Both the position numbers and the translations under genes were made by a program. Below are positions 15,785-44,937 of a stretch of DNA of 64,000 nucleotides, piece by piece (position 1 is the stretch's first letter; the number at the start of each line of letters is the position of its first letter). Source of the stretch: Jeotgalicoccus saudimassiliensis (GTDB lineage: Bacteria; Bacillota; Bacilli; Staphylococcales; Salinicoccaceae); the NCBI RefSeq assembly GCF_000756715.1, contig NZ_CCSE01000001.1, positions 248,001 to 312,000 on the forward strand. Direction: 5' to 3'. The notes beneath the pieces are model-generated. The model had not been told where the DNA came from and ran no database searches. It was given only the letters and a program-made list of their open reading frames with translations.

Positions 15785-16104
15785 CACCGCAATGAGCGTG
15801 CGTCATTCCCGGGCAACCGGGTTATCACCGCAATGAGCGCGCGTCACTCCCGGGCAAGTGAGTTATCACCGCAATGAGGGTGTGTCATTCCCGGGTAACC
15901 GGGTTATCACCGCAATGAGGACGCCTCATTCCCGGGTAAGTGAGTTATCACCGCAATGAGCGTGCGTCATTCCCGAACAAGCACGTTATCACCGCAATGA
16001 GCGCGCGTCATTCCCGGGCAAGTGAGTTATCACCGCAATGAGGACGCCTCATTCCCGAACAACCGGCTTATCTCCGCAATGAGCGCGCATCAATCCCGGC
16101 CAAA
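15785..16104. repeat. Tandem repeat array 1: eight units of 41 bp
   Basis: Eight direct repeats begin at 15785, 15826, 15867, 15908, 15949, 15990, 16031 and 16072, every one exactly 41 bp apart. Seven start CACCGCAATGAG; the last starts CTCCGCAATGAG and fades out. Each holds the dyad AATGA-N7-TCATT, and in units 4 and 7 the arms lengthen to AATGAGG-ACG-CCTCATT by paired changes. The linker alternates between CAACCGGGTTAT-like and CAAGTGAGTTAT-like forms. The array fills the gap between two convergent terminators (thioesterase and mnhG) and encodes no plausible protein. Confidence 0.95.
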
Positions 16105-16106
16105 AC

Positions 16107-16142
16107 CAAAAAACACTCCCCGGAATCAAACCCGGGGAGTGC
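16107..16142 (-). terminator. Terminator of the mnh operon
   Basis: Read leftward, GCACTCCCCGG and CCGGGGAGTG pair across a short loop and are followed by six T, directly after the mnhG stop codon. Confidence 0.88.
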
Positions 16143-16154
16143 ATTTACTATTAA

Positions 16155-16577
16155 TTAATCATCAAGTTCTTTGTCTTTGCTGCGTTCGATTTTCAATCTG
16201 GCTGTTTCTTCAGTATCCACTTCCGAACCAGTTTCTGCACGTTTCAATTCATTAAGAATTGTCAGTTTGTAAGGTTCAACATCCGAGTGGAAGGCACTTC
16301 TCGCAATAAAGTGCGCACCAACAGGGGCAGAGATGAAAATAAACAGTACAGCAAGTAACAGCTGTGTATCAAATTCTGCATGGTAGTATCCGAAGTAAAT
16401 GAATACTCCAATCAGTGTCAGTCCAACACCGAACGTTGAACTTTTAGATGCAGCGTGCAGCCGTGTATATGTATCCGGGAGACGGATTATTCCGACTGCA
16501 GCAACTACTGTGAAAAAGGCACCTGCGATTAAGAAAAATGTTATCAGACTAACTATTATTATCTCTGTCATTTTCAA
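16155..16577 (-). CDS. mnhG: Na+/H+ antiporter subunit MnhG
   Basis: A 140-residue subunit of the multisubunit Mnh (Mrp) Na+/H+ antiporter, with three helices in the first 85 residues. The family segments VGIIRLPDTYTRLHAASKSSTFGVGLTLIG and FISAPVGAHFIARSAFHS are clear. It has a longer charged tail than MnhF. Translation starts at TTG behind AAAGGTG, 29 bp inside the end of mnhF. It is the last gene of the operon, before a strong terminator. Confidence 0.9.
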   Translation of the reverse strand: MKMTEIIIVSLITFFLIAGAFFTVVAAVGIIRLPDTYTRLHAASKSSTFGVGLTLIGVFIYFGYYHAEFDTQLLLAVLFIFISAPVGAHFIARSAFHSDVEPYKLTILNELKRAETGSEVDTEETARLKIERSKDKELDD

Positions 16578-16848
16578 TAATCACACCTTTCTCGAGGAAT
16601 TTCGCAAAACCGATTGTTGCGACGAAACCGATCATACCGATCAGCATAATTACAACCAGCAGGTACGATGTATCAAGTGCCATTGAAAGCAGTCCGATCA
16701 TACCCATCAGTGTTACACCGAATGCATCCAGTGTAATAACTCTGTCATGCAGTGTAGGTCCTTTCAGAACTCTGTAAATCATACCCAGCATCGCAAACGC
16801 AAATGCAATAACGCTTATGATAACAATTATATTAATAAAACCTGTCAT
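16549..16848 (-). CDS. mnhF: Na+/H+ antiporter subunit MnhF
   Basis: A 99-residue, three-helix subunit. The conserved stretch YRVLKGPTLHDRVITLDAFGVTLMGMIGL marks the family, and TSYLLVVIMLIGMIGFVATIGFAKFLEKG follows. The start shares ATGA with the stop of mnhE. Its overlap with mnhG suggests tight translational coupling of the small subunits, as expected for a complex in which all seven proteins are required. Confidence 0.9.
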   Translation of the reverse strand: MTGFINIIVIISVIAFAFAMLGMIYRVLKGPTLHDRVITLDAFGVTLMGMIGLLSMALDTSYLLVVIMLIGMIGFVATIGFAKFLEKGVIIENDRDNNS

Positions 16849-17324
16849 GGTTTAGACACCTCTTTTATTACATTTTCAAAAGAAGTTTTAATGTTTTCAA
16901 TTTCTTCATCGGCGTCTTCCATATCAAGTCCGTGAATATAAATATTGGAATAGTCTTCAGAAATTGCCACAACTACCGTCCCGGGAGTTAATGTAATTAA
17001 CGTGGAAAGCAGAGCAACTTCCCATTCTTCTTCCAGGTCACTAGGATAAGCATAGAATCCCGGATGAATATCGATTTTCGGTGACATAACGATACGTACA
17101 ACTTCGAGATTCGCTTTTGTCAGTTCGATGATAAAGATAAAGAACAGCTTGATTATCCAGTAGAGACGCTTGATATAAAAGCGACCCGGCAGGAAGTTAC
17201 GGAGTACGTATACCGCAACTAAACCGATAAGATAACCTGTAACAAATGTACCTACTGTAAAATCACCATTCATAAACACCCATAGGAATGCAAGTAAGAC
17301 GTTAATCATCAGTTGAAAAGACAA
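16845..17324 (-). CDS. mnhE: Na+/H+ antiporter subunit MnhE
   Basis: A 159-residue subunit with two or three helices in the N-terminal half and a soluble C-terminal part. The family motif LLSTLITLTPGTVVVAISEDYSNIYIHGLD is intact. Translation starts at a TTG that follows the mnhD stop directly. GGGGGTGG just before serves as ribosome site, so the two genes are coupled. Confidence 0.9.
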   Translation of the reverse strand: MSFQLMINVLLAFLWVFMNGDFTVGTFVTGYLIGLVAVYVLRNFLPGRFYIKRLYWIIKLFFIFIIELTKANLEVVRIVMSPKIDIHPGFYAYPSDLEEEWEVALLSTLITLTPGTVVVAISEDYSNIYIHGLDMEDADEEIENIKTSFENVIKEVSKP

Positions 17325-18818
17325 TTATTCCACCCCCATCAAATAGTTTGAGTATGATGACGGATCAAAGAATGATTCAGCCGCCATTTCGAAAGCGGGG
17401 AATAAAAAGTCTGCTGAAAGACCAAAAATCGTTGAAACGATAACGAGACCAACAGCTGAGAACAGCAGTTTATCCGCCTTGATATTCTTGAGTTCAATCG
17501 GCTCTGCCGGTTCACCCCAGAATACTTTAATAAATATTTTCATAATACTGTATAACACGATTAAACTCGACAGAAGTACGATTACTGCAGAGATTGCATG
17601 GCCGTTGTCAAATGCGGATTCGACGATAAACAGTTTACCGAAGAACCCCGGGAACGGTGGTACACCGGCAAGTGACAGTGAAGCGACAAAGAACATCCAC
17701 CCGACAAACGGATGCTGTTTTATCAAGCCGCCGAGGTCGGCTGCATCATTTTTACCTGTACGGAAGATGATAAAGCCGATCATCATAAACAATGCTGCTT
17801 TAATAATCATGTCGTGAATCAGATAGTAAATTGCGCCGACTGTTCCCGCGTAGTCCATCATTGAGAACCCGACGATTATAACACCGACTGCAATCATGAT
17901 GTTATAAATAATAATCTGTTTCATGTCAGTGTAGGCAAGTGCTCCAATACAGCCTGCAACGATTGTTAACAGAGCCATCAGCAGAAGCAGCTGGTGTGTA
18001 AATGCAGTATCTGTCGTAAAGAACAGTGAAAATGTTCGTGCGATGGCATATACGCCGACTTTCGTCAGCAGGGCGCCAAACAGTGCAATAACCGGAATCG
18101 GTGGTGCACTGTAAGAACCGGGCATCCAGAAATACAGCGGGAACAATCCGGCCTTAGTTGCAAATACAAAGATAAATACAACGGCAACCAGCGTCATTAT
18201 TATCAGATTGCCTTCGTAGTTCGACAGCTTAATGTGAATGTCAGCCATGTTCAGCGAACCTGTAATAGAATACAGGTAGGCCAGACCCACGAGGAAGAAG
18301 TTGGAAGATACGATGTTAACAACAAGGTATTTAAATCCTTCCTGAAGCTGAACTTTACGGCTGCCGAGTGTAATCAGTACATAAGAAGCGAGAAGAAACA
18401 CTTCGAAGAATACGAACATGTTAAAAATATCTCCCGTTGTGAATGCACCGTTAATCCCTGTGATCATAAATAAAATCATCGGGTAATAGTAATATTTTTC
18501 TCTTTCATAACCAATAGATTGAAAAGAGTAAATAACTGTAAAAAACATCACGAGTGACGTAGTGAATACGAGCAGTGCGGCAATCATGTCATAGACAACA
18601 CTGATACCAAAAGGCGCCGACCAGTTACTCATATATGACACCATCGTACCGTTAACATAAACATAATAGATGTTATAGCCTGCTATACCAACCATAACCA
18701 GTCCTGTTATTGCAGATATTATTCTGTGGGGCATCGGTCGTTTTCCGACAAACAACATAATGACACCAGCCAGAAATGGAAGAATGATTGGGAGCATAGG
18801 TAATACATTAATCGCCAT
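17325..18818 (-). CDS. mnhD: Na+/H+ antiporter subunit MnhD
   Basis: A 497-residue, about fourteen-helix subunit related to the NuoL/M/N antiporter-like proteins of complex I. Key charged residues of that family lie in GDIFNMFVFFEVFLLASYVLI (helix 5 glutamate), FATKAGLFPLYFWMPGSYSAPP (helix 7 lysine) and YLIHDMIIKAALFMMIGF. Together with MnhA it is thought to form the ion-conducting modules. It overlaps mnhC by 11 bp. Confidence 0.93.
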   Translation of the reverse strand: MAINVLPMLPIILPFLAGVIMLFVGKRPMPHRIISAITGLVMVGIAGYNIYYVYVNGTMVSYMSNWSAPFGISVVYDMIAALLVFTTSLVMFFTVIYSFQSIGYEREKYYYYPMILFMITGINGAFTTGDIFNMFVFFEVFLLASYVLITLGSRKVQLQEGFKYLVVNIVSSNFFLVGLAYLYSITGSLNMADIHIKLSNYEGNLIIMTLVAVVFIFVFATKAGLFPLYFWMPGSYSAPPIPVIALFGALLTKVGVYAIARTFSLFFTTDTAFTHQLLLLMALLTIVAGCIGALAYTDMKQIIIYNIMIAVGVIIVGFSMMDYAGTVGAIYYLIHDMIIKAALFMMIGFIIFRTGKNDAADLGGLIKQHPFVGWMFFVASLSLAGVPPFPGFFGKLFIVESAFDNGHAISAVIVLLSSLIVLYSIMKIFIKVFWGEPAEPIELKNIKADKLLFSAVGLVIVSTIFGLSADFLFPAFEMAAESFFDPSSYSNYLMGVE

Positions 18819-19149
18819 GTGGAACTCCTTTCATATCTTCGGTATTATCTGTGCCGAGCTCTTTATAGTTTCTGAGCAGCAATACGAGACTGTATGCAGT
18901 CAAGGCAAATGAAATTACAATTGCTGTCAGAATTAAAGCCTGCGGCAATGGATCGGAATACGAACTTACTGAATCGTCAAGAACCGGCACGTTACCGCGT
19001 TTCAGCTGTCCCATTGTCAGAATCATTAAATGAACTCCGTGAGACAGAATGGAAAGTCCGATAATTATACGTAAAACACTCTTTGACAAAATTAAGTAAG
19101 TCGCACTGGCAATCAGTATGCCGGATAAAATTATAGTGACGAGTTCCAT
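18808..19149 (-). CDS. mnhC: Na+/H+ antiporter subunit MnhC (NuoK-like)
   Basis: A 113-residue, three-helix subunit homologous to NuoK of complex I. The family pattern RIIIGLSILSHGVHLMIL, then DPLPQALILTAIVISFALTAYSLVLLLR, is complete. The start codon shares its A with the stop of mnhB (TAATG). It is expected to sit between MnhA and MnhD in the complex. Confidence 0.92.
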   Translation of the reverse strand: MELVTIILSGILIASATYLILSKSVLRIIIGLSILSHGVHLMILTMGQLKRGNVPVLDDSVSSYSDPLPQALILTAIVISFALTAYSLVLLLRNYKELGTDNTEDMKGVPHGD

Positions 19150-19616
19150 TACTTTTCAGCACCTCCGACTAACGTAATAATCAACAGGGAAGTACCGGCT
19201 ACCGTAAGGAATACACCGATGTCAAACAGTACTGCGGTATGCAGTGCAACCTCTCCAAACACCGGCACGTTAATATAAGTGTGCTGATGAGTGAAAAACG
19301 GAACACCGAAGAAAAATAACAATGTCGGTACCACGATTGCAAAAGCAAGTCCGATACTGATCATCAGGTGAAAATTCACCGGAATCATTTTCTTTACAGT
19401 TTCATAATCATACGCCATCAGTAAAAGAATGATGGCAGAGGCAGCCAGCAGCCCGCCGACGAATCCACCGCCGGGAGTGTAGTGGCCTGCCAGAAATAAA
19501 TTAACAGAGAACAGCAGGACGATGAGAAAGATCACTTTTGAAGTGAACTGGATAAACACATCGTTCATCTGGCGCTGTACTTTACTGTAGCCAGCTCTCT
19601 TAAGCGTGCTCTTCAT
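19149..19616 (-). CDS. mnhB: Na+/H+ antiporter subunit MnhB
   Basis: A 155-residue subunit with four helices. The hallmark LFLAGHYTPGGGFVGGLLAASAIILLLMAYD is present, as is the C-terminal VAGTSLLIITLVGG. ATG at 19616 is chosen because AAAGG lies nine bases before it. Two in-frame ATG codons at 19625 and 19622 overlap that ribosome site. It overlaps the end of mnhA by 17 bp. Confidence 0.9.
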   Translation of the reverse strand: MKSTLKRAGYSKVQRQMNDVFIQFTSKVIFLIVLLFSVNLFLAGHYTPGGGFVGGLLAASAIILLLMAYDYETVKKMIPVNFHLMISIGLAFAIVVPTLLFFFGVPFFTHQHTYINVPVFGEVALHTAVLFDIGVFLTVAGTSLLIITLVGGAEK

Positions 19617-21999
19617 TATCATCATCCTTTCTGGATACTTTTGCTTTCATTAAAGCATAAATTCCGATTCCCGCAATACCGAATACCAGTGTTTCCATCA
19701 GAGTATCGTATCCACGGAAGTCAACGAGTATAACGTTTACCATGTTCCCACCGGCTGCCAGCTCGTACACATTGTCAATGTGGTACTGACTGATTGAATC
19801 AAACAGGCGGTTTGAGTAGGCAGCGAGACCGAAAAGTATTACGATGACGCCGACACCTACCGACACGATAAAGTTTATGAACTTGAATTGCATACTTTCT
19901 TCATGTTTTGAACGTTTAGGCAGATGATAGAAACATACGAGGAATAACGTCGTCGTAACAGTTTCAATTGCCAGCTGAGTCAGCGCAAGGTCCGGCGCTC
20001 TGAAGAACGCAAAGAACAGTGCCATTGAAAAGCCGATTGCACCGAGCATAATAATCGATACCATGCGTGAACGTGTCATCATAATAATTGCTAGTGACAC
20101 AAGCATAATTATAACGAGTGCCATATCCTGTAGACCGACTTCGGCAAAGTTATCAAAAACGATAGGCAGACCAGCATAGAATGTAGTGATTACTCCGATT
20201 ACTACGAAGAATCCAAAAATATAAACCATATATTCTCTCAGGAAACCGGTCATGATACCGTCTGTAGCTTTTGCAGAACCCAGTTCGCTGTAGATTAACC
20301 CCTGATCGTAGAGGTAGTTCAGCGTAAACTGTTCCTTATGATAGTCGTATATAAACATCCAGCTGTTTCTGAATAAGTACAGTGCCGCTCCGATTACTAC
20401 GACCGCAACTGTTGCCCAGAGTGCCGGGTTGTTAAACCCGTGCCAATGTGAAATTTTCGTATTTAAAGCTGTATCCGAAGCAAGAATGCTCATTGCTGCC
20501 GGGTCAATAATGCTGCCTGACAGAATGTTCGGGAACAGGCCGAAAATAATAACCAGCGATGATAAAATAATCGGTGAAGCGAGCAGCAGAGCCGGTGCTT
20601 CGTGGGGTTCCTTCGGTGTATCGTGTGTACGTTTACCAAAGAATACGCCGTGAATTAATTTGATTGAATACACAAATGTGAAAATACTTCCGGCGATAGC
20701 AAGTATCGGGAACAGGACGCTCCATTCAGCAAGCGCGCTGAAGTTTGCCTGGCTGATTTCAAACATTGCCTCAAGGAATAACTCTTTAGACAGGAATCCG
20801 TTAAACGGCGGCAGACCTGCCATCGATAAGGATGTAATTATCGTCATCGTAAAAGTAATAGGCATTAAAGTCATCAGACCGCCGAGTTTTCTAATACTGC
20901 GCGTGCCTGTTTCGTGGTCGAGAATACCCGCCACCATGAACAGCGCACCTTTAAATGTTGCATGGTTGATAATGTGGAACACTGCAGCAACGACTGCCAC
21001 TGTAAAGAGCTGCTCATTGGCACCGCTTGCAACAGCGAGCGCACCAACACCGAGAAGACTCATAATCATACCCAGCTGTGAAACAGTTGAGAATGCAAGC
21101 ACAGCTTTTAAGTCGTCTTTTTTAACTGCGTTGAATGATCCCCAGAACAATGTGACGAGTCCTGTAACGAGAATCAGCCATACCCACAGTTCGCTGAATG
21201 CGAAAACGGGTGTGAATCTTGCAACCAGGTAAAGACCTGCTTTAACCATCGTAGCTGAGTGAAGGTAAGCACTGACAGGAGTCGGGGCTTCCATAGCGTC
21301 CGGCAGCCAGATGTAGAACGGGAATTGTGCTGATTTAGTAAATGCACCGAGCAGAATTAACACAACTGCCAATGGAGCAAGCGGACTTGCCGTAATTAAA
21401 TCAACGTTAGCAATCATTTCCCTTATACTGAACGAACCTGTAATAATAGAAAGTATAATGAATCCGCCGAGCATCATAAATCCGCCGAAGAAAGTAATCA
21501 GCATGGATTTCTGTGCACCGTAAACCGATTTATCTTTCGTAAACCAGAATGCAATCAGCAGGAAACTTGAAATTGAAGTGAGCTCCCAGAAAAAATAGAG
21601 CATAAGTACGTTATCGCTCAATACCACTCCAAGCATTGCCGTCATAAAAATAAGAAGATAGACATAAAAATTACCCAGTCTTTCGTCTTTAGAAAGGTAA
21701 CCGATAGAATATAAAACTACCAGTGAGCCTATACCAGAAATCAGTATTGCGAATAGTAAGCCGAGACCATCTATGTAGACGTCAAAATTCAGCCCGATCC
21801 GGGGCATTAAATTCAATGTATGATGGAAAACTTGATTATCCGCAACAGAAGGTATTAAGCTAAATAAGTATGCAGCTATCACAGCCGGAATAGGTAAAAC
21901 AAACCAACCGAGATGTACATCTTTAACATACCTGTATATTATTGCGATTGCGACCGCAGCAATTACAGGCAGAAATATTGCTAAATGTATCAATGTCAA
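19600..21999 (-). CDS. mnhA: Na+/H+ antiporter subunit MnhA
   Basis: The largest subunit, 799 residues. It joins a NuoL-like antiporter domain (about 1-500; EELTSISSFLLIAFWFTK-type glutamate helix, FTKSAQFPFYIWLPDAMEAPTPVSAYLHSATMVKAG lysine helix) to C-terminal helices related to NuoJ and MbhE-type domains (APDLALTQLAIETVTTTLFLVCF). The complex exports Na+ in exchange for protons and supports salt and alkali tolerance. The open frame starts at an ATG at 22035, but AGAGGAGG lies seven bases before a TTG at 21999, giving MTLIHLAIFLPV as in other MnhA proteins. It is the first gene of the seven-gene leftward operon mnhABCDEFG. Confidence 0.92.
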   Translation of the reverse strand: MTLIHLAIFLPVIAAVAIAIIYRYVKDVHLGWFVLPIPAVIAAYLFSLIPSVADNQVFHHTLNLMPRIGLNFDVYIDGLGLLFAILISGIGSLVVLYSIGYLSKDERLGNFYVYLLIFMTAMLGVVLSDNVLMLYFFWELTSISSFLLIAFWFTKDKSVYGAQKSMLITFFGGFMMLGGFIILSIITGSFSIREMIANVDLITASPLAPLAVVLILLGAFTKSAQFPFYIWLPDAMEAPTPVSAYLHSATMVKAGLYLVARFTPVFAFSELWVWLILVTGLVTLFWGSFNAVKKDDLKAVLAFSTVSQLGMIMSLLGVGALAVASGANEQLFTVAVVAAVFHIINHATFKGALFMVAGILDHETGTRSIRKLGGLMTLMPITFTMTIITSLSMAGLPPFNGFLSKELFLEAMFEISQANFSALAEWSVLFPILAIAGSIFTFVYSIKLIHGVFFGKRTHDTPKEPHEAPALLLASPIILSSLVIIFGLFPNILSGSIIDPAAMSILASDTALNTKISHWHGFNNPALWATVAVVVIGAALYLFRNSWMFIYDYHKEQFTLNYLYDQGLIYSELGSAKATDGIMTGFLREYMVYIFGFFVVIGVITTFYAGLPIVFDNFAEVGLQDMALVIIMLVSLAIIMMTRSRMVSIIMLGAIGFSMALFFAFFRAPDLALTQLAIETVTTTLFLVCFYHLPKRSKHEESMQFKFINFIVSVGVGVIVILFGLAAYSNRLFDSISQYHIDNVYELAAGGNMVNVILVDFRGYDTLMETLVFGIAGIGIYALMKAKVSRKDDDNEEHA

Positions 22000-22033
22000 A
22001 GTGTATCCTCCTCTTACGTTATTATATTTAACC

Positions 22034-22039
22034 ATTATA
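22034..22039 (-). promoter_or_regulatory. Possible -10 element of the mnh operon promoter
   Basis: A leftward TATAAT lies about 35 bases upstream of the mnhA start, with an AT-rich and weak -35 region (TTTATT at 17 bp spacing). The call rests mainly on position. Confidence 0.4.
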
Positions 22040-22072
22040 CATTAATATTAATTGTAAATAAACGCATACGGT

Positions 22073-22100
22073 TTGAAATTTTTGACGATTCTCGTATAAT
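22073..22100 (+). promoter_or_regulatory. ppiB promoter
   Basis: TTGAAA (22073-22078), a 16-bp spacer and a perfect TATAAT (22095-22100) precede a leader of about 100 bases before ppiB. Confidence 0.65.
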
Positions 22101-22206
22101 GTATATATGGTAGTAAGTAGTATTAAATTTAGAATTATGTAAGTTTAAATTTCAGTATTGCTATTGCTAATTTGAAATTAATAAAATTTTTCAGGAGGCC
22201 AAATTT

Positions 22207-22797: not shown

Positions 22798-22812
22798 CAG
22801 AGCGGCTTTCAG

Positions 22813-22850
22813 GTGCGCAGTCCGGTTAATAACTGGCTGTGCACTTTTTT
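22813..22850 (+). terminator. Terminator after ppiB
   Basis: GTGCGCAGTCCGGTT pairs imperfectly with AACTGGCTGTGCAC and is followed by six T. Confidence 0.75.
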
Positions 22851-22990
22851 ATATAGAGTGAAATATATACATATATGTGGAAGGATTTTCTGAAATAACT
22901 TTGAAAGTATCACAAATTAGTCATTATTATATTATTTATATAGTAAAACACTCTGATATACTTGTTTGTGTAAAGGTGAGTGATTTAAAA

Positions 22991-26567: not shown

Positions 26568-26601
26568 AAAGACAAAACCTTTCGGGGTTTTGTCTTTTTT
26601 A
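26568..26601 (+). terminator. Terminator after gudB
   Basis: AAAGACAAAACC and GGGTTTTGTCTTT form a near-perfect stem with a four-base loop, followed by a T run. Repeat array 2 starts 30 bp downstream. Confidence 0.88.
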
Positions 26602-26631
26602 TTTTTTTTGGAGAGGCTGGTGTGGTGCTAA

Positions 26632-26826
26632 GTAACAATGAGGGCGGTTCATAGTTACTTAGGGCCGTTTACGTAACAATGAGGGCGGTTCATAGTCACT
26701 TAGGACTGTTTTCGTAACAATGAGAGCGGTTCATAGTCACTTAGGACTGTTTTCGTAACAATGAGAGCGGTTCATAGTTACTTAGGATCGTTTTCGTAAC
26801 AATGAGAGCCGTTCATAGTCACTTAG
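26632..26826. repeat. Tandem repeat array 2: five units of 41 bp
   Basis: Five direct repeats start at 26632, 26673, 26714, 26755 and 26796, each exactly 41 bp apart; the last is partial. Units open GTAACAATGAG and contain the dyad ATGA-N7-TCAT. In units 1 and 4 the outer arms GTAAC and GTTAC extend the pairing; other units read GTCAC. The linker is ACTTAGGACTGTTTTC or a close variant. The core CAATGAG-loop-TCAT resembles array 1. The array lies between the gudB terminator and the trp leader. No coding potential was seen. Confidence 0.95.
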
Positions 26827-36707: not shown

Positions 36708-39700
36708 ATTTACCGAAGCACAGAGTATGGCAATCAATACGAAAGGTTCGGATATTTTAGTGTCCGCCGCGGCCGGTTCCGGGAAAACCGCGGTACTGGT
36801 TGAACGTATTAAACAGAATATTATCGACGGCAACTATTCCATCGATGAAGTGTTCGTATCGACATTTACGAACAAAAGTGCCAAAGACATGAAGGACAAA
36901 ATCGAACGGGCACTCCGTCAGACGTACAATGAGACACCTGATCCACGGCTGAACGATGAGATTATTAAACTGAACGATGCACATATATCAACGCTGCACA
37001 GTTTCTGTTTATATTTAATCCAGACGCACTATAACGCTGTCGGGCTGCCGCCGGATATGCGTACACTCGGTCAGGTCGAAACAGAAATCCGGCTGCAGAA
37101 TATTATTACCGCCGTACTTGAGGAGTTTTATATTGCAGCTGATGAAGACTTCCTGAAACTCGACCAGTTCGTAACGAGCAACAAAGACAACAGCGCACTG
37201 CACAAACTCGTGACACAGCTTTACCATGTCGCCATTGCGACGAAGGAACCGATGAATTTTCTTAACGGCATGACAGATCAGTATATTACGGACCAAAAGC
37301 TTGAAGAGATACTCGGAAGTTACAGGGCGGTTATTGGACGCAGGCTGAGAAAGCTCGATCAGGACCTTTATATTCTTAAGACGGAATACGATAATGCCGA
37401 ACGCGATGAGGAATTAAAAGAAAAAGCAATTGACGATGCATATGAAAAACTGGCGGTAATGCATAAATATGTGACTGGGGCACTCGAATCATTCAGTACA
37501 GAAGGCAGTTTTAAACTGCCGGCTGCCAAACTGGTAACAGGAGCGAATGCATTTATTAAAAGTGCAACGGCATACGGTAATGATTTAAATGACCGTTATA
37601 ACAAACCGGCCAATACACTGTATCAGGAACTCAGTAAAGTGACGCAGTATACTCATGAGGACGTTAAAGCGGAACTCGCACCGTTAAACGGCATGAACAA
37701 CCAGCTGATTAATATCGCAAAAGAAGTTATTGAGGCATACAGAAAAGACAAACAGTCGGCCAATGAGATGGACTTTAACGACTATGAGCATTATGCACTC
37801 GATATTCTTACGGCGAATGACAATGAAATCGCGGAACGTTACAAAGAACAGTTTAAGGAAATAATGATCGATGAGTATCAGGATATTAACAGGGTGCAGG
37901 AAGCGATTATCCAGCTGCTGAAATCAGGAGATGAACACGACGGTAACCTGTTTATGGTAGGGGATGTCAAACAGTCCATTTACCGTTTCAGACAGGCGGC
38001 ACCGGACTTATTTATCGATAAAAGCGAACGCTTCAATCATGCGGACAGCGGCAGGCTGATTCAGCTGAACAGAAACTTCCGTTCGCGCAGTGAGATACTC
38101 GATGCAACAAATTTAATATTTGAAAATATTATGGATAAAAATCTCGGTGAAATTGAATATACCGACGAAGAAAAATTAATTAAAGGCATTGAAGCAGCAG
38201 AGCCGGAATCTCCGGTAGAAGTGCTGCCGGTCATTTATGATAAAAATTTAAAGTCTGCCGATGCAGATGAGCTGGAAATTAAACAGATTGTTAAACTTGT
38301 GCAGGAATTGTATAAAAAAGGTGCGTCGTATCAGGATATCGTTATTTTAAACCGCAACCGTTTTGCACCGGATATAATGCGTCATGAATTCCAAAAGGCA
38401 GATATTCCAATCAGTATCGATGTTAATAAAGGCTATTTTGAAACGTTTGAGATTTTAACGATGCGGAGCATTTTATCGCTGATTGACAACCCGCTGCAGG
38501 ATGATCATCTTGCAGGTGTCATGAGACTGCCGATGTTCGGCTTCAGCGAAGAGGAAATAGCGGAAATCCGTATTTCATCCGATGAAAAATATCTCTATGA
38601 AGCGCTGACGGAATACAGCGGCAAGGAACAGATAATGAGGAAAATCGAAGAATTCACCGGCACATTTAAAGAACTGAAACTTCATGCGAAATACTTAAGT
38701 GTGCCGGAACTCATTGCTGAGATTTTCTTTGAGCTGAACATACTGGAGTTCTTCAGCGGCCTGCCCGGCGGTTCTGCAAGACGCGCCAACTTAAACGGAC
38801 TGATCGACAGGGCGTTGGAGTTCCAGTCGATGAACAATACGAGTCTGTATCAGTTTATCAGTTATATTGATTTTCTGATTTCAGAAGGTAAGGATTTCGG
38901 TGAGGAAGGCCCGCTTGAAAACACGGATGACGCGGTGCGTGTGATGACGGTGCACAGTTCAAAAGGGCTCGAGTTTAAGCACGTTATTTACGCAGATCTG
39001 AAGCAGAATTTTACACTGACGAAAGTAACCCGTGTGTACGTCCATCCGAAGCTCGGTATCGTATTCAACAACTTTAATGATGAATTAAACTATCATTACG
39101 ACAGCATTCACGGCTTTACTGCCAACGACTTTCTGACCATCGAACAGCTGAGCGAGGAACTCCGTCTGATTTACGTTGCACTCACGAGGGCAGAGGAGAA
39201 ACTTTACCTGCCGCTTATGTTTAAAGGCGAAGAGGAATACAAGTATGATTTCAGCAGAATGGAAAAGCCGTCATTTGAAACACGTGCGGAACTGAAGTCG
39301 GCAATGGATTTCCTTGCGCCTGTCCTCATGCAGTCGAGTGCACCTTTTATCGAAGTGAAGGAAGCGGAAATCACGGATGGTGAAGAGAACGAACGTACTG
39401 AATACGCCGGACTGTCAGATATCGATGCGCTGAATGCTGATATTATACCGGAAGTCCGGGAGCGTCTCTTTTACAATTATCCGAATCAGGATGATGCCGA
39501 AGTGACGACGAAGGAATCGGTCACATCGATTAAACGCCGGAACGAAACAATTCCGGACGGTGCAGAGTATATCAGTCATACAAGTGAAGTGAAGCTGCGT
39601 GAGCCGAACTTCCTCGGCGATTCACTGGAAGCACCTGTTTTCGGGACAATTATGCACGAGATGATGATGCATATTATGCACCAGTGGCAGACGCTGAGCG

Positions 39701-40155
39701 TAATGGATGAAGCCGCGAGAACCGCTTATATCGATACGCTGATCGATAACTACAGCGCTAATTATGAACTGCTGAGCAGTGTTCACATTAAGAAGATGAA
39801 AGAAAATGCAGCACGGTTTTTCAATGATGAAATGATGAATGGCCTGTTAAATACACAAAAAGGCATTCATACAGAGCTGCCGTTTATAATGAGTCAGGAA
39901 GCAATCGGTTACGCCGAGCATCCGGAGCAGATAGTGCAGGGGATTATCGACTGTCTGCTGGAATATGACGACCGTTATATTATTATTGACTATAAAACTG
40001 ACCGTGTAAAAGGAACGGACTTAACCGCTTCAGACCTTGCCGGACGCTACAGCACGCAGATGGATATCTACACGAAATCGGCGCAGGTATCGCTTGGAAA
40101 ACCTGTGACAGCCGTACTTTACTTTTTTGATTATGGGGCGATTCCAGTTGAATGA
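36700..40155 (+). CDS. addA: ATP-dependent helicase/nuclease subunit A (AddA/RexA)
   Basis: An 1151-residue UvrD-type helicase fused to a RecB-family nuclease. The Q-motif FTEAQ and Walker A SAAAGSGKT (residues 22-30) lie at the N-terminus. Helicase motif II is MIDEYQD, motif IV is LNRNFRSR, motif V is VMTVHSSKGLEF and motif VI is VALTRAEEKL. The nuclease motif YIIIDYKTD is near the C-terminus. ATG 36700 has GAGGTG four bases upstream; the frame reaches six codons further back without a ribosome site. Confidence 0.94.
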   Translation: MVKFTEAQSMAINTKGSDILVSAAAGSGKTAVLVERIKQNIIDGNYSIDEVFVSTFTNKSAKDMKDKIERALRQTYNETPDPRLNDEIIKLNDAHISTLHSFCLYLIQTHYNAVGLPPDMRTLGQVETEIRLQNIITAVLEEFYIAADEDFLKLDQFVTSNKDNSALHKLVTQLYHVAIATKEPMNFLNGMTDQYITDQKLEEILGSYRAVIGRRLRKLDQDLYILKTEYDNAERDEELKEKAIDDAYEKLAVMHKYVTGALESFSTEGSFKLPAAKLVTGANAFIKSATAYGNDLNDRYNKPANTLYQELSKVTQYTHEDVKAELAPLNGMNNQLINIAKEVIEAYRKDKQSANEMDFNDYEHYALDILTANDNEIAERYKEQFKEIMIDEYQDINRVQEAIIQLLKSGDEHDGNLFMVGDVKQSIYRFRQAAPDLFIDKSERFNHADSGRLIQLNRNFRSRSEILDATNLIFENIMDKNLGEIEYTDEEKLIKGIEAAEPESPVEVLPVIYDKNLKSADADELEIKQIVKLVQELYKKGASYQDIVILNRNRFAPDIMRHEFQKADIPISIDVNKGYFETFEILTMRSILSLIDNPLQDDHLAGVMRLPMFGFSEEEIAEIRISSDEKYLYEALTEYSGKEQIMRKIEEFTGTFKELKLHAKYLSVPELIAEIFFELNILEFFSGLPGGSARRANLNGLIDRALEFQSMNNTSLYQFISYIDFLISEGKDFGEEGPLENTDDAVRVMTVHSSKGLEFKHVIYADLKQNFTLTKVTRVYVHPKLGIVFNNFNDELNYHYDSIHGFTANDFLTIEQLSEELRLIYVALTRAEEKLYLPLMFKGEEEYKYDFSRMEKPSFETRAELKSAMDFLAPVLMQSSAPFIEVKEAEITDGEENERTEYAGLSDIDALNADIIPEVRERLFYNYPNQDDAEVTTKESVTSIKRRNETIPDGAEYISHTSEVKLREPNFLGDSLEAPVFGTIMHEMMMHIMHQWQTLSVMDEAARTAYIDTLIDNYSANYELLSSVHIKKMKENAARFFNDEMMNGLLNTQKGIHTELPFIMSQEAIGYAEHPEQIVQGIIDCLLEYDDRYIIIDYKTDRVKGTDLTASDLAGRYSTQMDIYTKSAQVSLGKPVTAVLYFFDYGAIPVE

Positions 40156-41254
40156 TTCAAACAGACATATTTATTTTATCGGCGGTACAGCGCTGAGTTT
40201 ACTATTTTTATACAGCGGCCTGTTTTACATGATGCCGCTGCACGAAATCAATCCGTTCGAATATTTTTTCGGACGAGACCTGAATGTTTATAATATCGTG
40301 GATATTATTACAGGCGGCTCGATATTGCCGCTCATCAGCATTATTACGGGCTATATAATCAGCCAGTACAGTTACAAAGGCAAAAAGCATATTGCCAAAG
40401 TACTGGCATTTATGATGCTTATCCTGCTTTTAAATACAGTGCTGATCTTCGGCTTTGATAAAATGCCCTATGTGATTTTAACAGCATTTATCGGTTTGTT
40501 CTTTGTCGGGCGTCACTGGATTATTTCACTTGCTGCATCGCTGGCACTGTTTGCACTGCATTTAATGTTCAACGTTGTACTGGAAATAATATCCGGGCTG
40601 AATTCCAACATTCAGCATATGTATTCGGGCATTCAGCGTGTGAATGAATTTATCAGCACATACAGAAGCAGCGATTATTTATCCATGGTGAATATGAACG
40701 TGGATATACTTTCAGGAGCCGGTGCAGAATCGCTGTACAGTGCACTCTTTATCATTTTGCCGTCAATTCTGCTCGGTGTGGCCCTGAAAGAGCTGGACTT
40801 TACAACTTTCATTAAGGACAGCCCGTTTCTCAGTGCCGGTATTATAATGGCGCTTCTTGCAGGCGGTATTGCGACGAAACTGCTGCAGGTACTTTCACTG
40901 GGAACAATTACAGGAGAAACGCTCGGTGAAGGATTCGGCGGACCGGTTACAGCAATCGGGTACTTTATGATTCTGGCATATATTGCAGACAGTCTGCCAA
41001 AGCCGGTATTCGAAGTATTTTATAACCTCGGTAAATATGGATTAACTTCATATATAATATTCAATATTCTTATGATGTTTATCTTCTACGGTTTCGGTCT
41101 CGCATTGTATGGACAAATATCAGTACAGATGCTTATATTAATCGTTGCAGCACTTTATGTACTGCTTATGATTCTTATGAATCTTGCGGCAAAATTTAAT
41201 ATTCCGTTACTGGAACAGACTTTTCAGACAAATAAGAAAATGAGACGGGAATAA
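40148..41254 (+). CDS. Polytopic membrane protein, DUF418-like C-terminus
   Basis: A membrane protein of about 368 residues with nine or ten helices. The C-terminal part (NLGKYGLTSYIIFNILMMFIFYGFGLALYG) resembles the DUF418/YeiB family, whose function is unknown. The start is uncertain: TTG 40148 (MNDSNRHIYFIGG) follows GGGGCGA and overlaps the end of addA by 8 bp, while ATG 40133 and TTG 40127 are possible. It has no known link to recombination; proximity to addA may only reflect shared transcription. Confidence 0.65.
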   Translation: MNDSNRHIYFIGGTALSLLFLYSGLFYMMPLHEINPFEYFFGRDLNVYNIVDIITGGSILPLISIITGYIISQYSYKGKKHIAKVLAFMMLILLLNTVLIFGFDKMPYVILTAFIGLFFVGRHWIISLAASLALFALHLMFNVVLEIISGLNSNIQHMYSGIQRVNEFISTYRSSDYLSMVNMNVDILSGAGAESLYSALFIILPSILLGVALKELDFTTFIKDSPFLSAGIIMALLAGGIATKLLQVLSLGTITGETLGEGFGGPVTAIGYFMILAYIADSLPKPVFEVFYNLGKYGLTSYIIFNILMMFIFYGFGLALYGQISVQMLILIVAALYVLLMILMNLAAKFNIPLLEQTFQTNKKMRRE

Positions 41255-41304
41255 TTAAATAATGTTTGTTATACTGTATGAAAGAAAACAAAGGAGATTG
41301 TCCA

Positions 41305-42195
41305 ATGAAATTTTTAACTTTTGAGTATCAAGACAAGAATTATTATGGTGTCAAAGTAAAACGTGAAGACAGTGCGTGGATTATTCCGCGTTTATTCCAG
41401 GATTTCAGCGATGTTAAAGATTATCCGAGAACATTGCTTGAAGGTATTACTGAGTACCACACATTGGATTTTCAGGAACTTGTCAGAAAGCTCGTTGAAA
41501 GTGCAGAAGCATCTGACAATGCTGAACAGTATAAAGCACCATTTGAAGAAATTAATATACTTGCACCGGTGAAACCGCCGAATAATACTATCGGTTTCGG
41601 ACGCAATTTCAAAGCTCACGCAGAAGAGATGAACAATGAAGTTGAACTGTATGTATTCACAAAAGCGAATTCAAGCCTAGTCGGTGATGAGGATACAATT
41701 TCTGATTTCAGCGAACTGACTGAACAGCTGGACTATGAAGGGGAGCTCGGTGTTGTTATCGGGAAAGAAGCAAAAAACATAGACAGCTCAATGGCATTTG
41801 ATCACATTTACGGTTATACAATCGTTAATGATATATCAGCAAGAGAACTGCAGAAGTCACACAAACAGGCATTCTTATCGAAGAGCCTTGCAACTCCAAT
41901 GGGACCTTATATCGTAACTAAAGATGAGATTCCAAATCCGCAAAACACGACAATCGTTACTAAAGTGAACGATGAAATCCGTCAGGACGGCAGCACGTCA
42001 CTGATGGTAAGAAAAATTGATGAAATGATAGCGGAGCTTTCCAGATATGTAACTCTGGAACCGGGTGATGTCATTGCAACAGGTACACCAGCAGGTGTCG
42101 GTGCAGGCATGGATCCCGCAGGATTCCTGAAATCAGGAGATACGGTACGTATTTCTATAGACGGAATTGGCACTTTAACGACACACATTGAGTAA
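41305..42195 (+). CDS. Fumarylacetoacetate hydrolase family protein
   Basis: A 296-residue FAH-domain enzyme. The domain fills residues about 85-290 and shows metal-ligand and catalytic segments: [47 protein letters not shown], and [25 protein letters not shown]. Members hydrolyse or decarboxylate diketoacids, for example acylpyruvates and oxaloacetate; substrate unknown here. ATG 41305 follows AAAGGAG at eight bases. A FAH gene lies near rexAB in Staphylococcus too. Confidence 0.88.
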
Positions 42196-42249
42196 AGATT
42201 CCATGATATAATACTACAGTAATCATTAATGTAGAGGGGGAATCAGACT

Positions 42250-42636
42250 GTGTTACATTTACACTTAACAGCTATTATTGTCGCAGTTATTTTATTTATC
42301 GCTGTTTACGGTATGTACAAGAAGAACAATACCCGCGATAACAAAGCTGCGTTCATAACGCATATGGTATTAAGAGTGTTCTATCTGATTGTACTGTTCA
42401 GCGGACTTATGGTTTATGTCGGCAACATGGAGGGAATCAGCAACTCCGGCGGTCACATGACATACGGCATTAAAGTTCTGCTTGGTATTCTTACTATCGG
42501 ATTCATGGAAATGGCGATTGTAAGACTTAAGAAAAACTCTGCAAAAGCAACTGTACTTATGGTCATTTGTCTTGCAGTAATTATCGCAACAGTTATTATG
42601 GGTGCTACGCTGCCGCTTGGCATGCTCAGCTTCTAA
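42250..42636 (+). CDS. YisL family membrane protein (DUF1516)
   Basis: A 128-residue protein with four predicted helices and almost no soluble part. The conserved LHLTAIIVAVILFIAVYGMYKKN beginning and FYLIVLFSGLMVYV, GGHMTYGIKVLLGILTIGFMEMA segments match the DUF1516/YisL family, of unknown function. Translation starts at GTG behind AGAGGGGG. A terminator follows. Confidence 0.82.
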   Translation: MLHLHLTAIIVAVILFIAVYGMYKKNNTRDNKAAFITHMVLRVFYLIVLFSGLMVYVGNMEGISNSGGHMTYGIKVLLGILTIGFMEMAIVRLKKNSAKATVLMVICLAVIIATVIMGATLPLGMLSF

Positions 42637-42652
42637 ACTGTATACTGAATGG

Positions 42653-42690
42653 CAAAGCCGGTCTGTTATATATTAACGGGCCGGCTTTTT
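42653..42690 (+). terminator. Terminator after the YisL-like gene
   Basis: AAAGCCGG and CCGGCTTT close an extended stem containing CTGTT and AACGG, followed by TTTTTATATTT. Confidence 0.8.
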
Positions 42691-42797
42691 ATATTTCGTG
42701 TTAAAATAAAATTTATGAACAATTAGTGAAACGAAGAACTAATGATGTGAAGTTTAGTATACTGATTATTATACGAAGTAAAAGGTAGGATAAAATT

Positions 42798-44237
42798 ATG
42801 AAGAAAATGCTAGCGTTTATGAGCACGGTTCTGGCAGTGCTGTTTATGAGCACGGGTCCTGTATCAGCTGAAGAAAATACATATGACAGAATTTATATGA
42901 TTACTGTCGACCGCTTTTTAAATAATAATACGTCAAATGATATCGGCGTAACTGCAGACGGTGATCCGTACTACCCGTTCGGCGGGGACTTTGACGGGGT
43001 TAAACCGTATCTTGAATACATTAAGGATATGGGATTCAACACGGTTATGCTGTCACCTGTAACAGAACGCGCTGAAGATGACTATCTCGGATACGACGTC
43101 ACAGACTACGGTGCAATCTCTGAAGCATACGGCAGCCCGGAAGACTTCAACAATCTTATCGGTGAAGCACATGAACTGGATATGAAAGTAATCGTTGATA
43201 TGCCCGCAGTGGCAACAGATGATTATACAGCACTTGAATCACCTGTATTCAACGACGTGCAGGCGGACTACTACGAGGATATCGGTAGAGAGATTATCGA
43301 TTTGAACGATGCGGATAACCAGGAAACATACCGGGCGATGGTCCAGAACTTTATCGATACTTACGATGTTGACGGTATCAGCATGTTTGTGAACCAGGAC
43401 GGTTTAAATGCAGAGGAATTCATGCCTGAAGGCATTGAAACCTACGGAATTTTATCGACTGGGGAACTGACGTCCGAAGGATTTGATACGACAGCATCAG
43501 AACAATTCAGAGCTGAACTTGCAGAAACATACGGTGGAATTAACCAGGATATTCCTGAATTCCCGGAAGATCAACAATTGATTATGGCCGATCACTGGTT
43601 CTCTGAGCGCTTCACTCATCACGCGGCAGAACAGAACATGTTCCCGGGTACGAGAGTCCAGCAGCTGGTGAATTATTTATACGCATACCGTGGACCAATT
43701 GCTATGACATATGGTACAGAAGTTGCGTTTAACGGTTCAGAATATCCGGAAGTACACCCGCAGATGGACTTCCGAAGCGATAAAGAAGTCATCGAATTCA
43801 TGGAGAATATCGCAGTCGTTTACCGCAACCATGAAATTATGCAGTCTCCCGAATCAGAAACTGAAACGATATTAAACGAAGCGGGACAGTACCTCGTTAA
43901 GTACTACACGGACGACGTGGACTACCTGCTCAATATTAACAACACGACAGAAACACAATCCAATACACTTAAACAGACAGCAGAAGAAGAAGGCAAAGTA
44001 CTGAGCGGAATGCTTATCGGAGATATGATCCGCCCGCACGAGGGCGAATTCATCGCAGTACTCGACAGAGAAGAAACAGAACTGTATTCAATCATCGATG
44101 AGGCAGGATTCAACAACGGTTATCTTTACGCAGCAGTACTCATCTTTGGTATCTTCGCAGTATTCGTCTGGGTTGCCGCAAGCCGCAGTAAAAAAGCGAG
44201 ACTGCAAAGAGAACAAAACGAACAAAATAATAAGTAA
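42798..44237 (+). CDS. Membrane-anchored alpha-amylase-like protein, probably catalytically inactive
   Basis: A 479-residue exported protein. A signal peptide (1-24, cut after VSA), a GH13-like barrel (about 28-330), and a C-terminal helix with a basic tail (YLYAAVLIFGIFAVFVWVAA then SRSKKARLQR) place it outside the cell and anchored in the membrane. The barrel begins YDRIYMITVDRFLNN and keeps the YGTEVAFNG loop. The catalytic regions are broken: region I reads VDMPAVATDD with no Asn-His, region II reads GISMFVNQD without the Arg and nucleophile Asp, and no F-x-x-N-H-D region IV is seen. A binding or structural role is more likely than starch hydrolysis. The gene is next to cdr, as I recall in Staphylococcus. 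Confidence 0.8.
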   Translation: MKKMLAFMSTVLAVLFMSTGPVSAEENTYDRIYMITVDRFLNNNTSNDIGVTADGDPYYPFGGDFDGVKPYLEYIKDMGFNTVMLSPVTERAEDDYLGYDVTDYGAISEAYGSPEDFNNLIGEAHELDMKVIVDMPAVATDDYTALESPVFNDVQADYYEDIGREIIDLNDADNQETYRAMVQNFIDTYDVDGISMFVNQDGLNAEEFMPEGIETYGILSTGELTSEGFDTTASEQFRAELAETYGGINQDIPEFPEDQQLIMADHWFSERFTHHAAEQNMFPGTRVQQLVNYLYAYRGPIAMTYGTEVAFNGSEYPEVHPQMDFRSDKEVIEFMENIAVVYRNHEIMQSPESETETILNEAGQYLVKYYTDDVDYLLNINNTTETQSNTLKQTAEEEGKVLSGMLIGDMIRPHEGEFIAVLDREETELYSIIDEAGFNNGYLYAAVLIFGIFAVFVWVAASRSKKARLQREQNEQNNK

Positions 44238-44252
44238 TTTATAGATTGTGAG

Positions 44253-44285
44253 CGCACTCCCCGGATTGGGAGTGCGTTTTTTTGT
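44253..44285 (+). terminator. Terminator after the amylase-like gene
   Basis: CGCACTCCC and GGGAGTGCG pair across a six-base loop and are followed by seven T. Repeat array 3 starts about 50 bp beyond. Confidence 0.88.
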
Positions 44286-44331
44286 CTGCGGAAGACTGGT
44301 GTGAGTGTGCTAGGGGTGAGGAGCGTTGCCG

Positions 44332-44937
44332 GATGACAACGGCAGTTCCCCGTTGTGAATCGAGCAGTCTCGGATGACAACGGCAGTTCCCCGTTGTGAA
44401 TCGAGCAGTCTCGGATGACAACGGCAGTTCCCCGTTGTGAATCGAGCGTTGCGGGATGACAACGGCAGTTCCCCGTTGTGAATCGAGCAGTCCCGAATGA
44501 CAACGGCGGTTTCCCGTTGTGAATCGAGCGGTCTCGGATGACAACGGCGGTTTCCCGTTGTGAATCGAGCAGTCCCGAATGACAACGGCGGTTTCCCGTT
44601 GTGAATCGAGCAGTCTCGGATGACAACGGCGGTTCCCCGTTGTGAATCGAGCGTTGCCGGATGACAACGGCAGTTCCCCGTTGTGAATCGAGCGTTGCGG
44701 GATGACAACGGCAGTTCCCCGTTGTGAATCGAGCGTTGCGGGATGACAACGGCGGTTCCCCGTTGTGAATCGAGCGTTGCCGGATGACAACGGCAGTTCC
44801 CCGTTGTGAATCGAGCAGTCCCGAATGACAACGGCGGTTTCCCGTTGTGAATCGAGCGGTCCCGGATGACAACACCAATCCACCGTTGTGAATCGAGCAG
44901 TCCCGGATGACAACACCAATCCCCCGTTGTGAATCAA
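44332..44937. repeat. Tandem repeat array 3: fifteen units of 41 bp
   Basis: Fifteen direct repeats start at 44332 and then every 41 bp to 44906. Each begins GATGACAAC (or AATGACAAC) and carries ACAACGG-N7-CCGTTGT, then GAATCGAGC and a variable end. Loops are CAGTTCC, CGGTTCC or CGGTTTC. Ends are CAGTCTCG, GTTGCGG, GTTGCCG, CAGTCCCG, GGTCTCG or GGTCCCG, mixed in different combinations. The last two units carry ACCAATCC-type loops and fade. It lies between two convergent terminators (amylase-like and cdr). Because 41 is not a multiple of three, all three leftward frames stay open, giving false ORFs up to 292 codons. Confidence 0.97.

What the first reader, a model, noticed from the sequence alone, without database searches (positions are those of the whole stretch)
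15785..44937. Three unrelated-looking intergenic arrays share one 41-bp period and one hairpin design
Arrays at 15785-16104 (8 units), 26632-26826 (5) and 44332-44937 (15) repeat at exactly 41 bp with no drift, although the sequences differ. Every unit has an inverted repeat with a loop of about 7 nt: AATGA-N7-TCATT, ATGA-N7-TCAT (extended by GTAAC/GTTAC in two units), and ACAACGG-N7-CCGTTGT. Arrays 1 and 2 also share the CAATGAG core. All three start within about 15-50 bp after a gene terminator and fill non-coding gaps, two of them convergent. Forty-one bp is close to four helical turns, so the dyads would face the same side of the DNA. I infer one family of elements under a shared constraint: protein-binding or topology elements similar in spirit to REP/BIME, or insulators. 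I do not recognise a named family; they are not the staphylococcal STAR type as I recall it.
Basis: partly seen in the sequence, partly recalled or inferred. Interest (0 to 1): 0.75.

Follow-up and report, generated by a model that had tools for sequence, protein, structure and literature searches.

The report
Fixed-period 41-bp palindrome arrays
This bacterium's chromosome carries dozens of tandem DNA arrays with different sequences but the same 41-base step and a similar paired-arm design, mostly in gaps where two genes run toward each other, which points to a shared and still unknown protein-binding or amplification machinery.

Summary
All three arrays step at exactly 41 bp. In 862 kb (39%) of this Jeotgalicoccus genome, TRF (score 90 or more) finds 42 arrays: 36 of period 41, two of 42, one of 51, three of other kinds. 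The 41-bp arrays fall into several sequence families. In 28 of 48 arrays (own plus relatives) the best inverted repeat has a 7-bp centre. Within arrays the arms vary about five-fold less than centre and spacer. Of 33 placeable arrays, 24 lie in convergent gaps, 9 in co-directional gaps, none in divergent gaps or called genes. Orthologous gaps in other species hold unrelated 41-bp arrays, single units, or nothing. ATGA-N7-TCAT stepping at 41 bp occurs in 9 of 9 Jeotgalicoccus genomes, one genome of another genus, and once among 147 others of the order. This is a new variant of the constant-size, variable-sequence bacterial satellites of Subirana and Messeguer (mainly 20-21 and 51-53 nt in Bacillus). 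Preferred reading: regularly spaced sites for an unidentified dimeric DNA-binding protein at convergent gene ends. A selfish satellite is the main rival. RAYT/REP membership is not supported.

The parts
15785..16103 (.). Array 1, family A, 41-bp period, 8 dyads AATGA-N7-TCATT (2 of them imperfect), convergent gap between a thioesterase-like gene and an MnhG-like antiporter gene
15734..15767 (+). Intrinsic-terminator hairpin and T run of the left gene, reading toward array 1
   Evidence: sequence; terminator scan
16108..16142 (-). Intrinsic-terminator hairpin of the right gene, reading toward array 1
   Evidence: sequence
26632..26826 (.). Array 2, family D, 41-bp period, 5 dyads in a 27-bp core GTAACAATGA-N7-TCATAGTNAC with a 14-bp spacer, downstream of glutamate dehydrogenase (co-directional gap, 77 bp after its stop, 669 bp before the next called gene)
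26569..26609 (+). Terminator hairpin and T run of the glutamate dehydrogenase gene, before array 2
   Evidence: sequence
44329..44935 (.). Array 3, family B, 41-bp period, 15 dyads ACAACGG-N7-CCGTTGT (the last 2 with a broken left arm), convergent gap between an alpha-amylase-family gene and a pyridine-nucleotide disulphide oxidoreductase gene
44253..44283 (+). Terminator hairpin and T run of the alpha-amylase-family gene, before array 3
   Evidence: sequence
44985..45018 (-). Terminator hairpin of the oxidoreductase gene, after array 3
   Evidence: sequence

Best explanation
These are chromosomal satellite arrays of a fixed 41-bp step. Each unit is a binding site for a dimeric DNA-binding protein: two inverted half-sites of about 5-12 bp around a 7-bp non-recognised centre, with a spacer whose length is kept but whose sequence is free. 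SHOWN: fixed step; a 7-bp-centred dyad as the commonest design; arm conservation against centre and spacer variation within arrays; placement between gene ends; orthologous gaps holding unrelated sequences; single-unit states in relatives; one core shared across two genera. INFERRED: a protein (one, or several paralogues with different specificities) binds the dyads and needs the 41-bp step for contacts between neighbours along the DNA; the bound array acts as a boundary between convergent transcription units; arrays grow and shrink by whole units through unequal exchange or slippage; copies spread between loci by a process not identified here. The function at convergent ends (blocking read-through, or handling supercoiling) is the least certain step.
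For: Period: 36 of the 39 arrays counted as non-coding in 862 kb are exactly 41 bp, two are 42, one is 51; 257 of 267 unit steps in the 38 arrays measured are 41. Dyad: the best inverted repeat has a 7-bp centre in 28 of 48 arrays. Constraint: mean within-array minority frequency 0.029 in arms, 0.042 in flanks, 0.163 in the centre, 0.136 in the spacer, over 31 arrays (Wilcoxon arm vs centre 9e-9, arm vs spacer 1e-6). Sequence rather than pairing is kept: of 54 altered arm cells among 1317, 1 is a compensatory double change, and G-T is hardly commoner than A-C (19 vs 16). Location: of 33 arrays with both neighbours called, 24 convergent (in 23 gaps), 9 co-directional, 0 divergent; by gap, 23 of 53 convergent, 9 of 235 co-directional and 0 of 89 divergent gaps of 60 bp or more hold one (Fisher 2e-15; 3e-14 if gaps of any length count). 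Terminators: 39 of 96 array sides (31 of 48 arrays) have one pointing in within 160 bp, against 15 of 400 random positions. Spacer length kept while sequence is free: at the glutamate dehydrogenase locus the family D core matches that of J. coquinae at 26 of 27 positions and the 14-bp spacer at 4 of 14. Array-bound cores in the sample: family B 106 inside arrays and 0 outside; C 48 and 2 (a dimer in a convergent gap); D 13 and 0. ATGA-N7-TCAT at 41 bp (exact) occurs in 9 of 9 Jeotgalicoccus genomes and in one of another genus, and as 1 pair in 1 of the remaining 147.
Against: No protein was identified and no binding was tested. Sequence families differ, so one sequence-specific protein cannot read them all. 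Convergent placement could be mere tolerance, since such gaps hold no promoters. No significant helical A/T periodicity was found. Only 14 of 48 single-array dyads reach p below 0.05 against shuffles, and 20 of 48 arrays have another best centre length; some of those share the same dyad centre, others do not. The short core AATGA-N7-TCATT also occurs 8 times outside arrays: 5 in coding sequence, 2 as a dimer and 1 single in convergent gaps. 17 of 48 arrays had no terminator by the scan, and its control was random positions, not gene ends. Many orthologous gaps lack arrays, so an array is dispensable at a given locus. Other genera and some arrays here use other steps (40, 42, 51, 52).
Confidence: 0.45

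Rival explanations
1. Selfish or neutral satellites: an amplification machinery with a built-in ruler (a recombinase, a replication-slippage process or a nuclease acting on the dyad) copies 41-bp units, and arrays survive only where they do no harm, between convergent genes.
For: High turnover: orthologous gaps are empty, single-unit or filled with an unrelated family. The family B pattern has 225 forward matches here but 0-31 in the other 8 Jeotgalicoccus genomes. Higher-order periods of 82, 123, 125 and 166 point to whole-unit exchange. Placement avoids promoters.
Against: A ruler alone does not explain why arms vary about 5 times less than centres within one array, unless the machinery itself needs the arm sequence. 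No transposase of the Y1 type was found in this genome.
Confidence: 0.32
2. The arrays act as RNA: read-through transcripts fold into strings of hairpins that serve as 3' ends, decay barriers, small RNAs or sponges.
For: 52-nt satellites of Bacillus coagulans are reported to be transcribed (passages of PMC8625621). Some arrays fold better than shuffled units: mean z -1.07 over 92 strand tests, 24% below -1.64.
Against: That mean is modest and partly expected from any dyad. Compensatory changes are almost absent and G-T is hardly favoured over A-C (not oriented by transcript strand). An RNA needs no exact 41-bp step. Many arrays lie behind terminators. No Rfam family matches the window's arrays.
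Confidence: 0.13
3. Recombinase core sites: inverted arms of 10-13 bp around a 6-8 bp crossover region, as in sites of tyrosine recombinases (comparison recalled).
For: Anatomy of arms plus a variable 7-bp centre; higher-order periods suggest change by whole units.
Against: Sites in tandem would be expected to collapse; no recombinase link was looked for; a 41-bp circle is too short to be a plausible product (inference).
Confidence: 0.05
4. REP/BIME elements mobilised by a RAYT transposase.
For: Palindromic units behind 3' gene ends.
Against: No Y1_Tnp match in this genome or in 7 of the 8 relatives; units are head-to-tail; no lone units of families B, C or D were found outside arrays in the sampled 862 kb.
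Confidence: 0.02

Closest known systems
Constant-size, variable-sequence bacterial tandem repeats (Subirana and Messeguer; PMC8161180, parts 1-4 of 5 of the text read; their 2020 J. Bacteriol. paper not held)
   Same: Many non-coding arrays per genome; several unrelated sequence families with one repeat length; short characteristic sequences, often with their reverse in the same repeat; partial conservation between relatives; arrays of about 2 to 17 units here.
   Different: Step of 41, while that paper's main classes in Bacillus are 20-21 and 51-53 nt with 'a few' of 40-41. Words beginning terminat-, intergenic, hairpin, Staphylo- and Jeotgalicoccus do not occur in its main text. Added here: 7-bp-centred dyad, arm/centre constraint, convergent-gap placement, single-unit states and replacement at orthologous gaps.
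REP/BIME elements of enterobacteria (recalled)
   Same: Short palindromic units at 3' ends of genes, often between convergent genes.
   Different: Head-to-tail with a fixed step, no RAYT in this genome, many sequence families, no lone B, C or D units in the sample.
Iteron and centromere arrays of plasmids (recalled)
   Same: Tandem protein-binding sites at a step near whole helical turns.
   Different: Dispersed over dozens of chromosomal gaps, not tied to one replicon function; protein binding here is only inferred.
CRISPR arrays
   Same: Repeat plus fixed-length spacer look.
   Different: Spacers are repeated within an array, not unique, and dozens of arrays occur.

Membership tests
Constant-size, variable-sequence bacterial satellites | Many tandem arrays per genome with one repeat length | tested here: met
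   36 of 39 arrays counted as non-coding are at 41 bp in 862 kb
Constant-size, variable-sequence bacterial satellites | Several sequence families with the same length in one genome | tested here: met
   families A, B, C, D and further ones in this genome
Constant-size, variable-sequence bacterial satellites | Non-coding | tested here: met
   0 of 33 placeable arrays inside called genes; 6 of 39 not placeable at stretch ends (home-made gene calls that skip ORFs covered by arrays for more than 30%)
Constant-size, variable-sequence bacterial satellites | Short characteristic sequences, often with their reverse in the same repeat | tested here: met
   dyads; described in PMC8161180
Constant-size, variable-sequence bacterial satellites | Reported main sizes 20-21 or 51-53 nt | tested here: not met
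   size is 41; the paper notes a few of 40-41 in Bacillus, so this is filed as a variant, not as a plain member
REP/BIME | Associated RAYT (Y1) transposase | tested here: not met
   0 matches in this genome; 1 of 9 genus genomes positive
REP/BIME | Extragenic palindromic units at 3' ends | tested here: met
REP/BIME | Binding of gyrase, integration host factor or polymerase I (recalled) | not testable with these tools
   needs ChIP or binding assays
CRISPR array | Unique spacers between repeats | tested here: not met
   the whole 41-bp unit is repeated; TRF match between units 74-97% over the own 41-bp arrays
Staphylococcal STAR element | STAR consensus sequence | not tested
   consensus only recalled, no scan run
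Tyrosine-recombinase core sites | Recombinase-dependent exchange at the 6-8 bp centre | not testable with these tools
   only the anatomy resembles

The most novel reading that the evidence does not exclude
A dedicated chromosomal punctuation system of Jeotgalicoccus and its relatives: an unknown dimeric protein (or set of paralogues) coats 41-bp-stepped dyad arrays placed between convergent terminators and forms regular protein-DNA filaments that insulate neighbouring transcription units or manage supercoiling. The step is set by the protein, and the sequence families turn over as paralogue specificities shift.
Probability: 0.25. Interest if true: 0.88.

Novelty: new variant of a known kind. 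Interest (0 to 1): 0.64.

Why it matters
Constant-size satellites were reported as enigmatic, with a proposed but untested role in the nucleoid or as RNA (PMC8161180). These arrays give them a testable anatomy: a 7-bp-centred dyad whose arms are constrained, a spacer whose length alone is kept, and an address behind terminators, mostly between convergent genes. A core found in two genera supplies a bait with which the binding protein, if there is one, can be fished out. If a protein is found, it could explain a class of bacterial repeats and possibly reveal a new chromosome-organising or insulating factor.

Tried and rejected
Chance: rejected; the backward-read control patterns match 0 times in every genome searched. 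Coding origin: a 292-aa ORF crosses array 3 on the - strand (44126-45004) but has no Pfam match; the other ORFs crossing the arrays were not scanned. RAYT mobilisation: Y1_Tnp absent. Known RNA family: at gathering scores only a lysine riboswitch elsewhere in the window. RNA folding: modest (the shuffle is a simple segment-swap scheme that may mix short units poorly). Helical bending signal: A/T power at 10.25 bp in 16 sequence families is 1.13 against 1.00 expected, p 0.26; 13 arrays of other genera and G008 1.37, p 0.09; six 51-52-bp arrays show 2.62 at the fifth harmonic, not tested. A second dyad half a step away was seen but is weak and partly forced by symmetry. Array ends tend to fall near dyad edges, but the unit finder biases this, so I do not use it. 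A dispersed transcription-factor site: not favoured, since B, C and D cores are confined to arrays in the sample; the shorter A core has 8 places outside. Between-array identity of arms is partly circular, because families were sorted by their arms; I rely on the within-array contrast. Literature searches: 0 papers; 1; 0; 1; 1, unrelated, listing only; 2, listings only; 12 listed, three looked into: PMC8161180 text parts 1-4 of 5, passages of PMC8625621 and of PMC6749651; 0; 1, listing only; 0. In these held open-access papers I saw no report of 41-bp arrays in Jeotgalicoccus; subscription papers and supplementary tables were not searched.
Full report
Observation. The three arrays are present as stated: 15785-16103, 26632-26826 and 44329-44935, each of period 41 with no indels (sequences). 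Nothing else in the window scores 50 or more in TRF. A few units have a broken arm (two in array 1, two in array 3).

Where it is. The window lies at 248001-312000 of a 2,191,063-base single contig. Its glutamate dehydrogenase is 96-97% identical to those of Jeotgalicoccus psychrophilus, J. coquinae and J. aerolatus, so the genome is taken as a Jeotgalicoccus.

Genome-wide. I examined 862 kb, 39% of the genome: the window plus 40 stretches of 20 kb. Seven stretches were chosen because family A was known to lie there, and the window is itself selected. TRF at score 90 or more gave 42 arrays after merging overlapping rows: 36 of period 41, two of 42, one of 51, and three of another kind (periods 202, 45 and 30). 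Below, 'the 39' are those of period 41, 42 or 51. Pattern searches of the whole genome found the broadened family B core repeated at exactly 41 bp (up to 3 mismatches) 225 times forward and 231 reverse, largely the same places, and ATGA-N7-TCAT at 41 bp 176 times with up to one mismatch, with 0 for the backward-read controls.

Anatomy. The best inverted repeat in the unit has a 7-bp centre in 28 of 48 arrays (39 own, 9 from relatives). These fall into few families, so they are not 28 independent cases; 14 of 48 reach p below 0.05 against shuffles of the unit. Families: A AATGA-N7-TCATT; B ACAACGG-N7-CCGTTGT; C CTATGA-N7-TCATAG; D GTAACAATGA-N7-TCATAGTNAC; K (C)ATGA-N7-TCAT(G) in relatives; smaller ones include a 42-bp family of two arrays with 11-bp imperfect arms around a 7-bp centre. 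Others differ: two related 41-bp arrays at contig 1078780 and 1839287 have 9-bp centres, two short arrays of 2.7-2.8 copies have 2 and 6, and a few more have none that stands out. Units were extracted from 38 of 44 arrays of period 41 (305 units); 6 were dropped because no 7-bp-centred dyad scored 4. Of 267 steps, 257 are 41, nine are 42 (all family A) and one is 38. Five of the 38 arrays fitted no named family and two had fewer than 4 units; in the other 31, arms vary least (0.029), then flanks (0.042), spacer (0.136) and centre (0.163). Slippage and unequal exchange act on the whole unit, so this contrast suggests that the arm sequence is selected or required by the machinery. Arm changes are almost never compensatory (1 of 54) and G-T is hardly commoner than A-C (19 vs 16), which favours recognition of double-stranded sequence over RNA pairing; this count was not oriented by transcript strand. 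Between arrays of one family, arms are 87-100% identical, centres 30-44%, spacers 50-62%, but families were sorted by their arms, so the arm figure is partly circular.

Place. With home-made gene calls, 33 of the 39 own arrays could be placed (6 at stretch ends): 24 convergent, 9 co-directional, 0 divergent, 0 inside called genes. By gap, 23 of 53 convergent, 9 of 235 co-directional and 0 of 89 divergent gaps of 60 bp or more hold one (Fisher 2e-15); counting gaps of any length it is 23 of 90, 9 of 442 and 0 of 91 (Fisher 3e-14). The caller discards ORFs covered by an array for more than 30%, so an array filling a real gene could be missed in principle. A terminator points in within 160 bp on 39 of 96 array sides (31 of 48 arrays), median 39 bp, against 15 of 400 random positions; the control was not restricted to gene ends. 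The 39 arrays are 53.5% G+C against 34.0% in the rest of the intergenic DNA. Convergent gaps with an array (23) keep 161 bp besides it at the median; those without (67) are 55 bp.

Comparison between species. At four loci (the three arrays and one just right of the window at contig 312419), gaps were located by BLAST and read by eye in up to five relatives. Array 1 locus: family A here, family K in G007 and G006, no array but some 60 bp between two terminators in G002, a single terminator in G001 (G005 not printed). Array 2 locus: family D here and in G002 with different spacers (core 26 of 27, spacer 4 of 14), another 41-bp sequence in G007, a single unit of that sequence in G006, a third unrelated 41-bp array in G001, none in G005. 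Array 3 locus: arrays in 2 of 9 genomes, this one and G008 with an unrelated 42-bp unit; G007 has a single copy resembling the G008 unit. Fourth locus: family A here, about two units in G006, one in G007, none recognisable in G002, an unrelated 41-bp array in G001 (G005 not printed). TRF on the 80-kb orthologous regions of these five genomes gave 9 arrays, 8 of period 41 and one of 51. Among 80 named glutamate dehydrogenase loci, 7 have an array (TRF 100 or more) starting within 500 bp of the gene end: three Jeotgalicoccus and Macrococcoides caseolyticum at 41 bp, Staphylococcus massiliensis at 40, Lysinibacillus at 42/21 and Lederbergia at 51; elsewhere in these loci arrays of many other periods occur, some likely coding. 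So the same gap is repeatedly occupied by unrelated sequences with similar step, and single units exist from which arrays could grow.

Wider distribution. Twenty stretches from ten genomes of the same family gave six arrays outside multiple-of-three repeats; all six are of period 41, in four genomes, with units unlike the Jeotgalicoccus families by eye (two genomes share one); the other six genomes showed none in the 20 to 80 kb sampled, and no gene calls were made there. ATGA-N7-TCAT at 41 bp, exact, occurs in 9 of 9 Jeotgalicoccus genomes (1 to 170 pairs), 52 times in one genome of another genus, and as 1 pair in 1 of the other 147 genomes of the order. The family B pattern (up to 3 mismatches) occurs in 6 of 9 Jeotgalicoccus genomes, 225 forward matches here and 4 to 31 in five others, and in none of 24 other genomes of the family. 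Families are thus shared at low level and expand in particular species.

Known kind. Subirana and Messeguer (PMC8161180; text parts 1-4 of 5 read) describe Bacillus tandem repeats of constant size (20-21, 51-53 nt) and variable sequence, with several families per species and short words, often with their reverse, in each repeat; they propose nucleoid binding or small RNAs. A figure legend mentions a few of 40-41 nt. Passages of PMC8625621 report that the 52-nt repeats of B. coagulans are transcribed. The arrays here are the same kind of thing with a 41-bp step and with features that I did not see stated there.

Mechanism. Most likely the dyads bind a dimeric protein and the step fixes the geometry between neighbouring dimers. 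Being between terminators of convergent genes suits a boundary role, but placement alone could be tolerance. The main rival is a selfish satellite with a ruler-like amplification machinery. Both need a factor that reads the arms. No Y1/RAYT transposase was found in this genome, RNA folding is only modestly better than shuffles, and a general helical composition signal was not found.

Noticed in passing
window 6942-7108 +: Lysine riboswitch (Rfam RF00168, 89.7 bits), the only Rfam match at gathering score in the window.
   Followed up: no
contig C1, whole: dnaA lies near 1,607 kb and GC skew switches near 0.9 and 1.6 Mb in the sampled stretches, which would make replichores of about 1.47 and 0.72 Mb, unusually unequal; an inversion or misassembly is possible.
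   Followed up: partly
contig C1 0.9-1.3 Mb: Arrays fill 12 of 20 convergent gaps here against 4 of 40 in stretches elsewhere that were not chosen for arrays, 11 of 64 with the chosen ones (Fisher 8e-5 and 4e-4); the region was picked after seeing the data.
   Followed up: partly
contig C1 21512-21802 and L197 17478-17751 (G005): 51-bp arrays with imperfect dyads of 12-13 bp arms, in the same genus as the 41-bp arrays.
   Followed up: partly
window 44126-45004 -: A 292-aa open frame runs through array 3; no Pfam match. Automatic annotation may call such frames genes.
   Followed up: partly
   Followed up: no
G004 (same genus): Has eight matches to the Y1 transposase family, three of them at contig starts, and only one ATGA-N7-TCAT pair, the fewest in the genus.
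   Followed up: no
contig C1 186411-186996: Long 45-bp repeat, probably coding since the period is a multiple of three.
   Followed up: no
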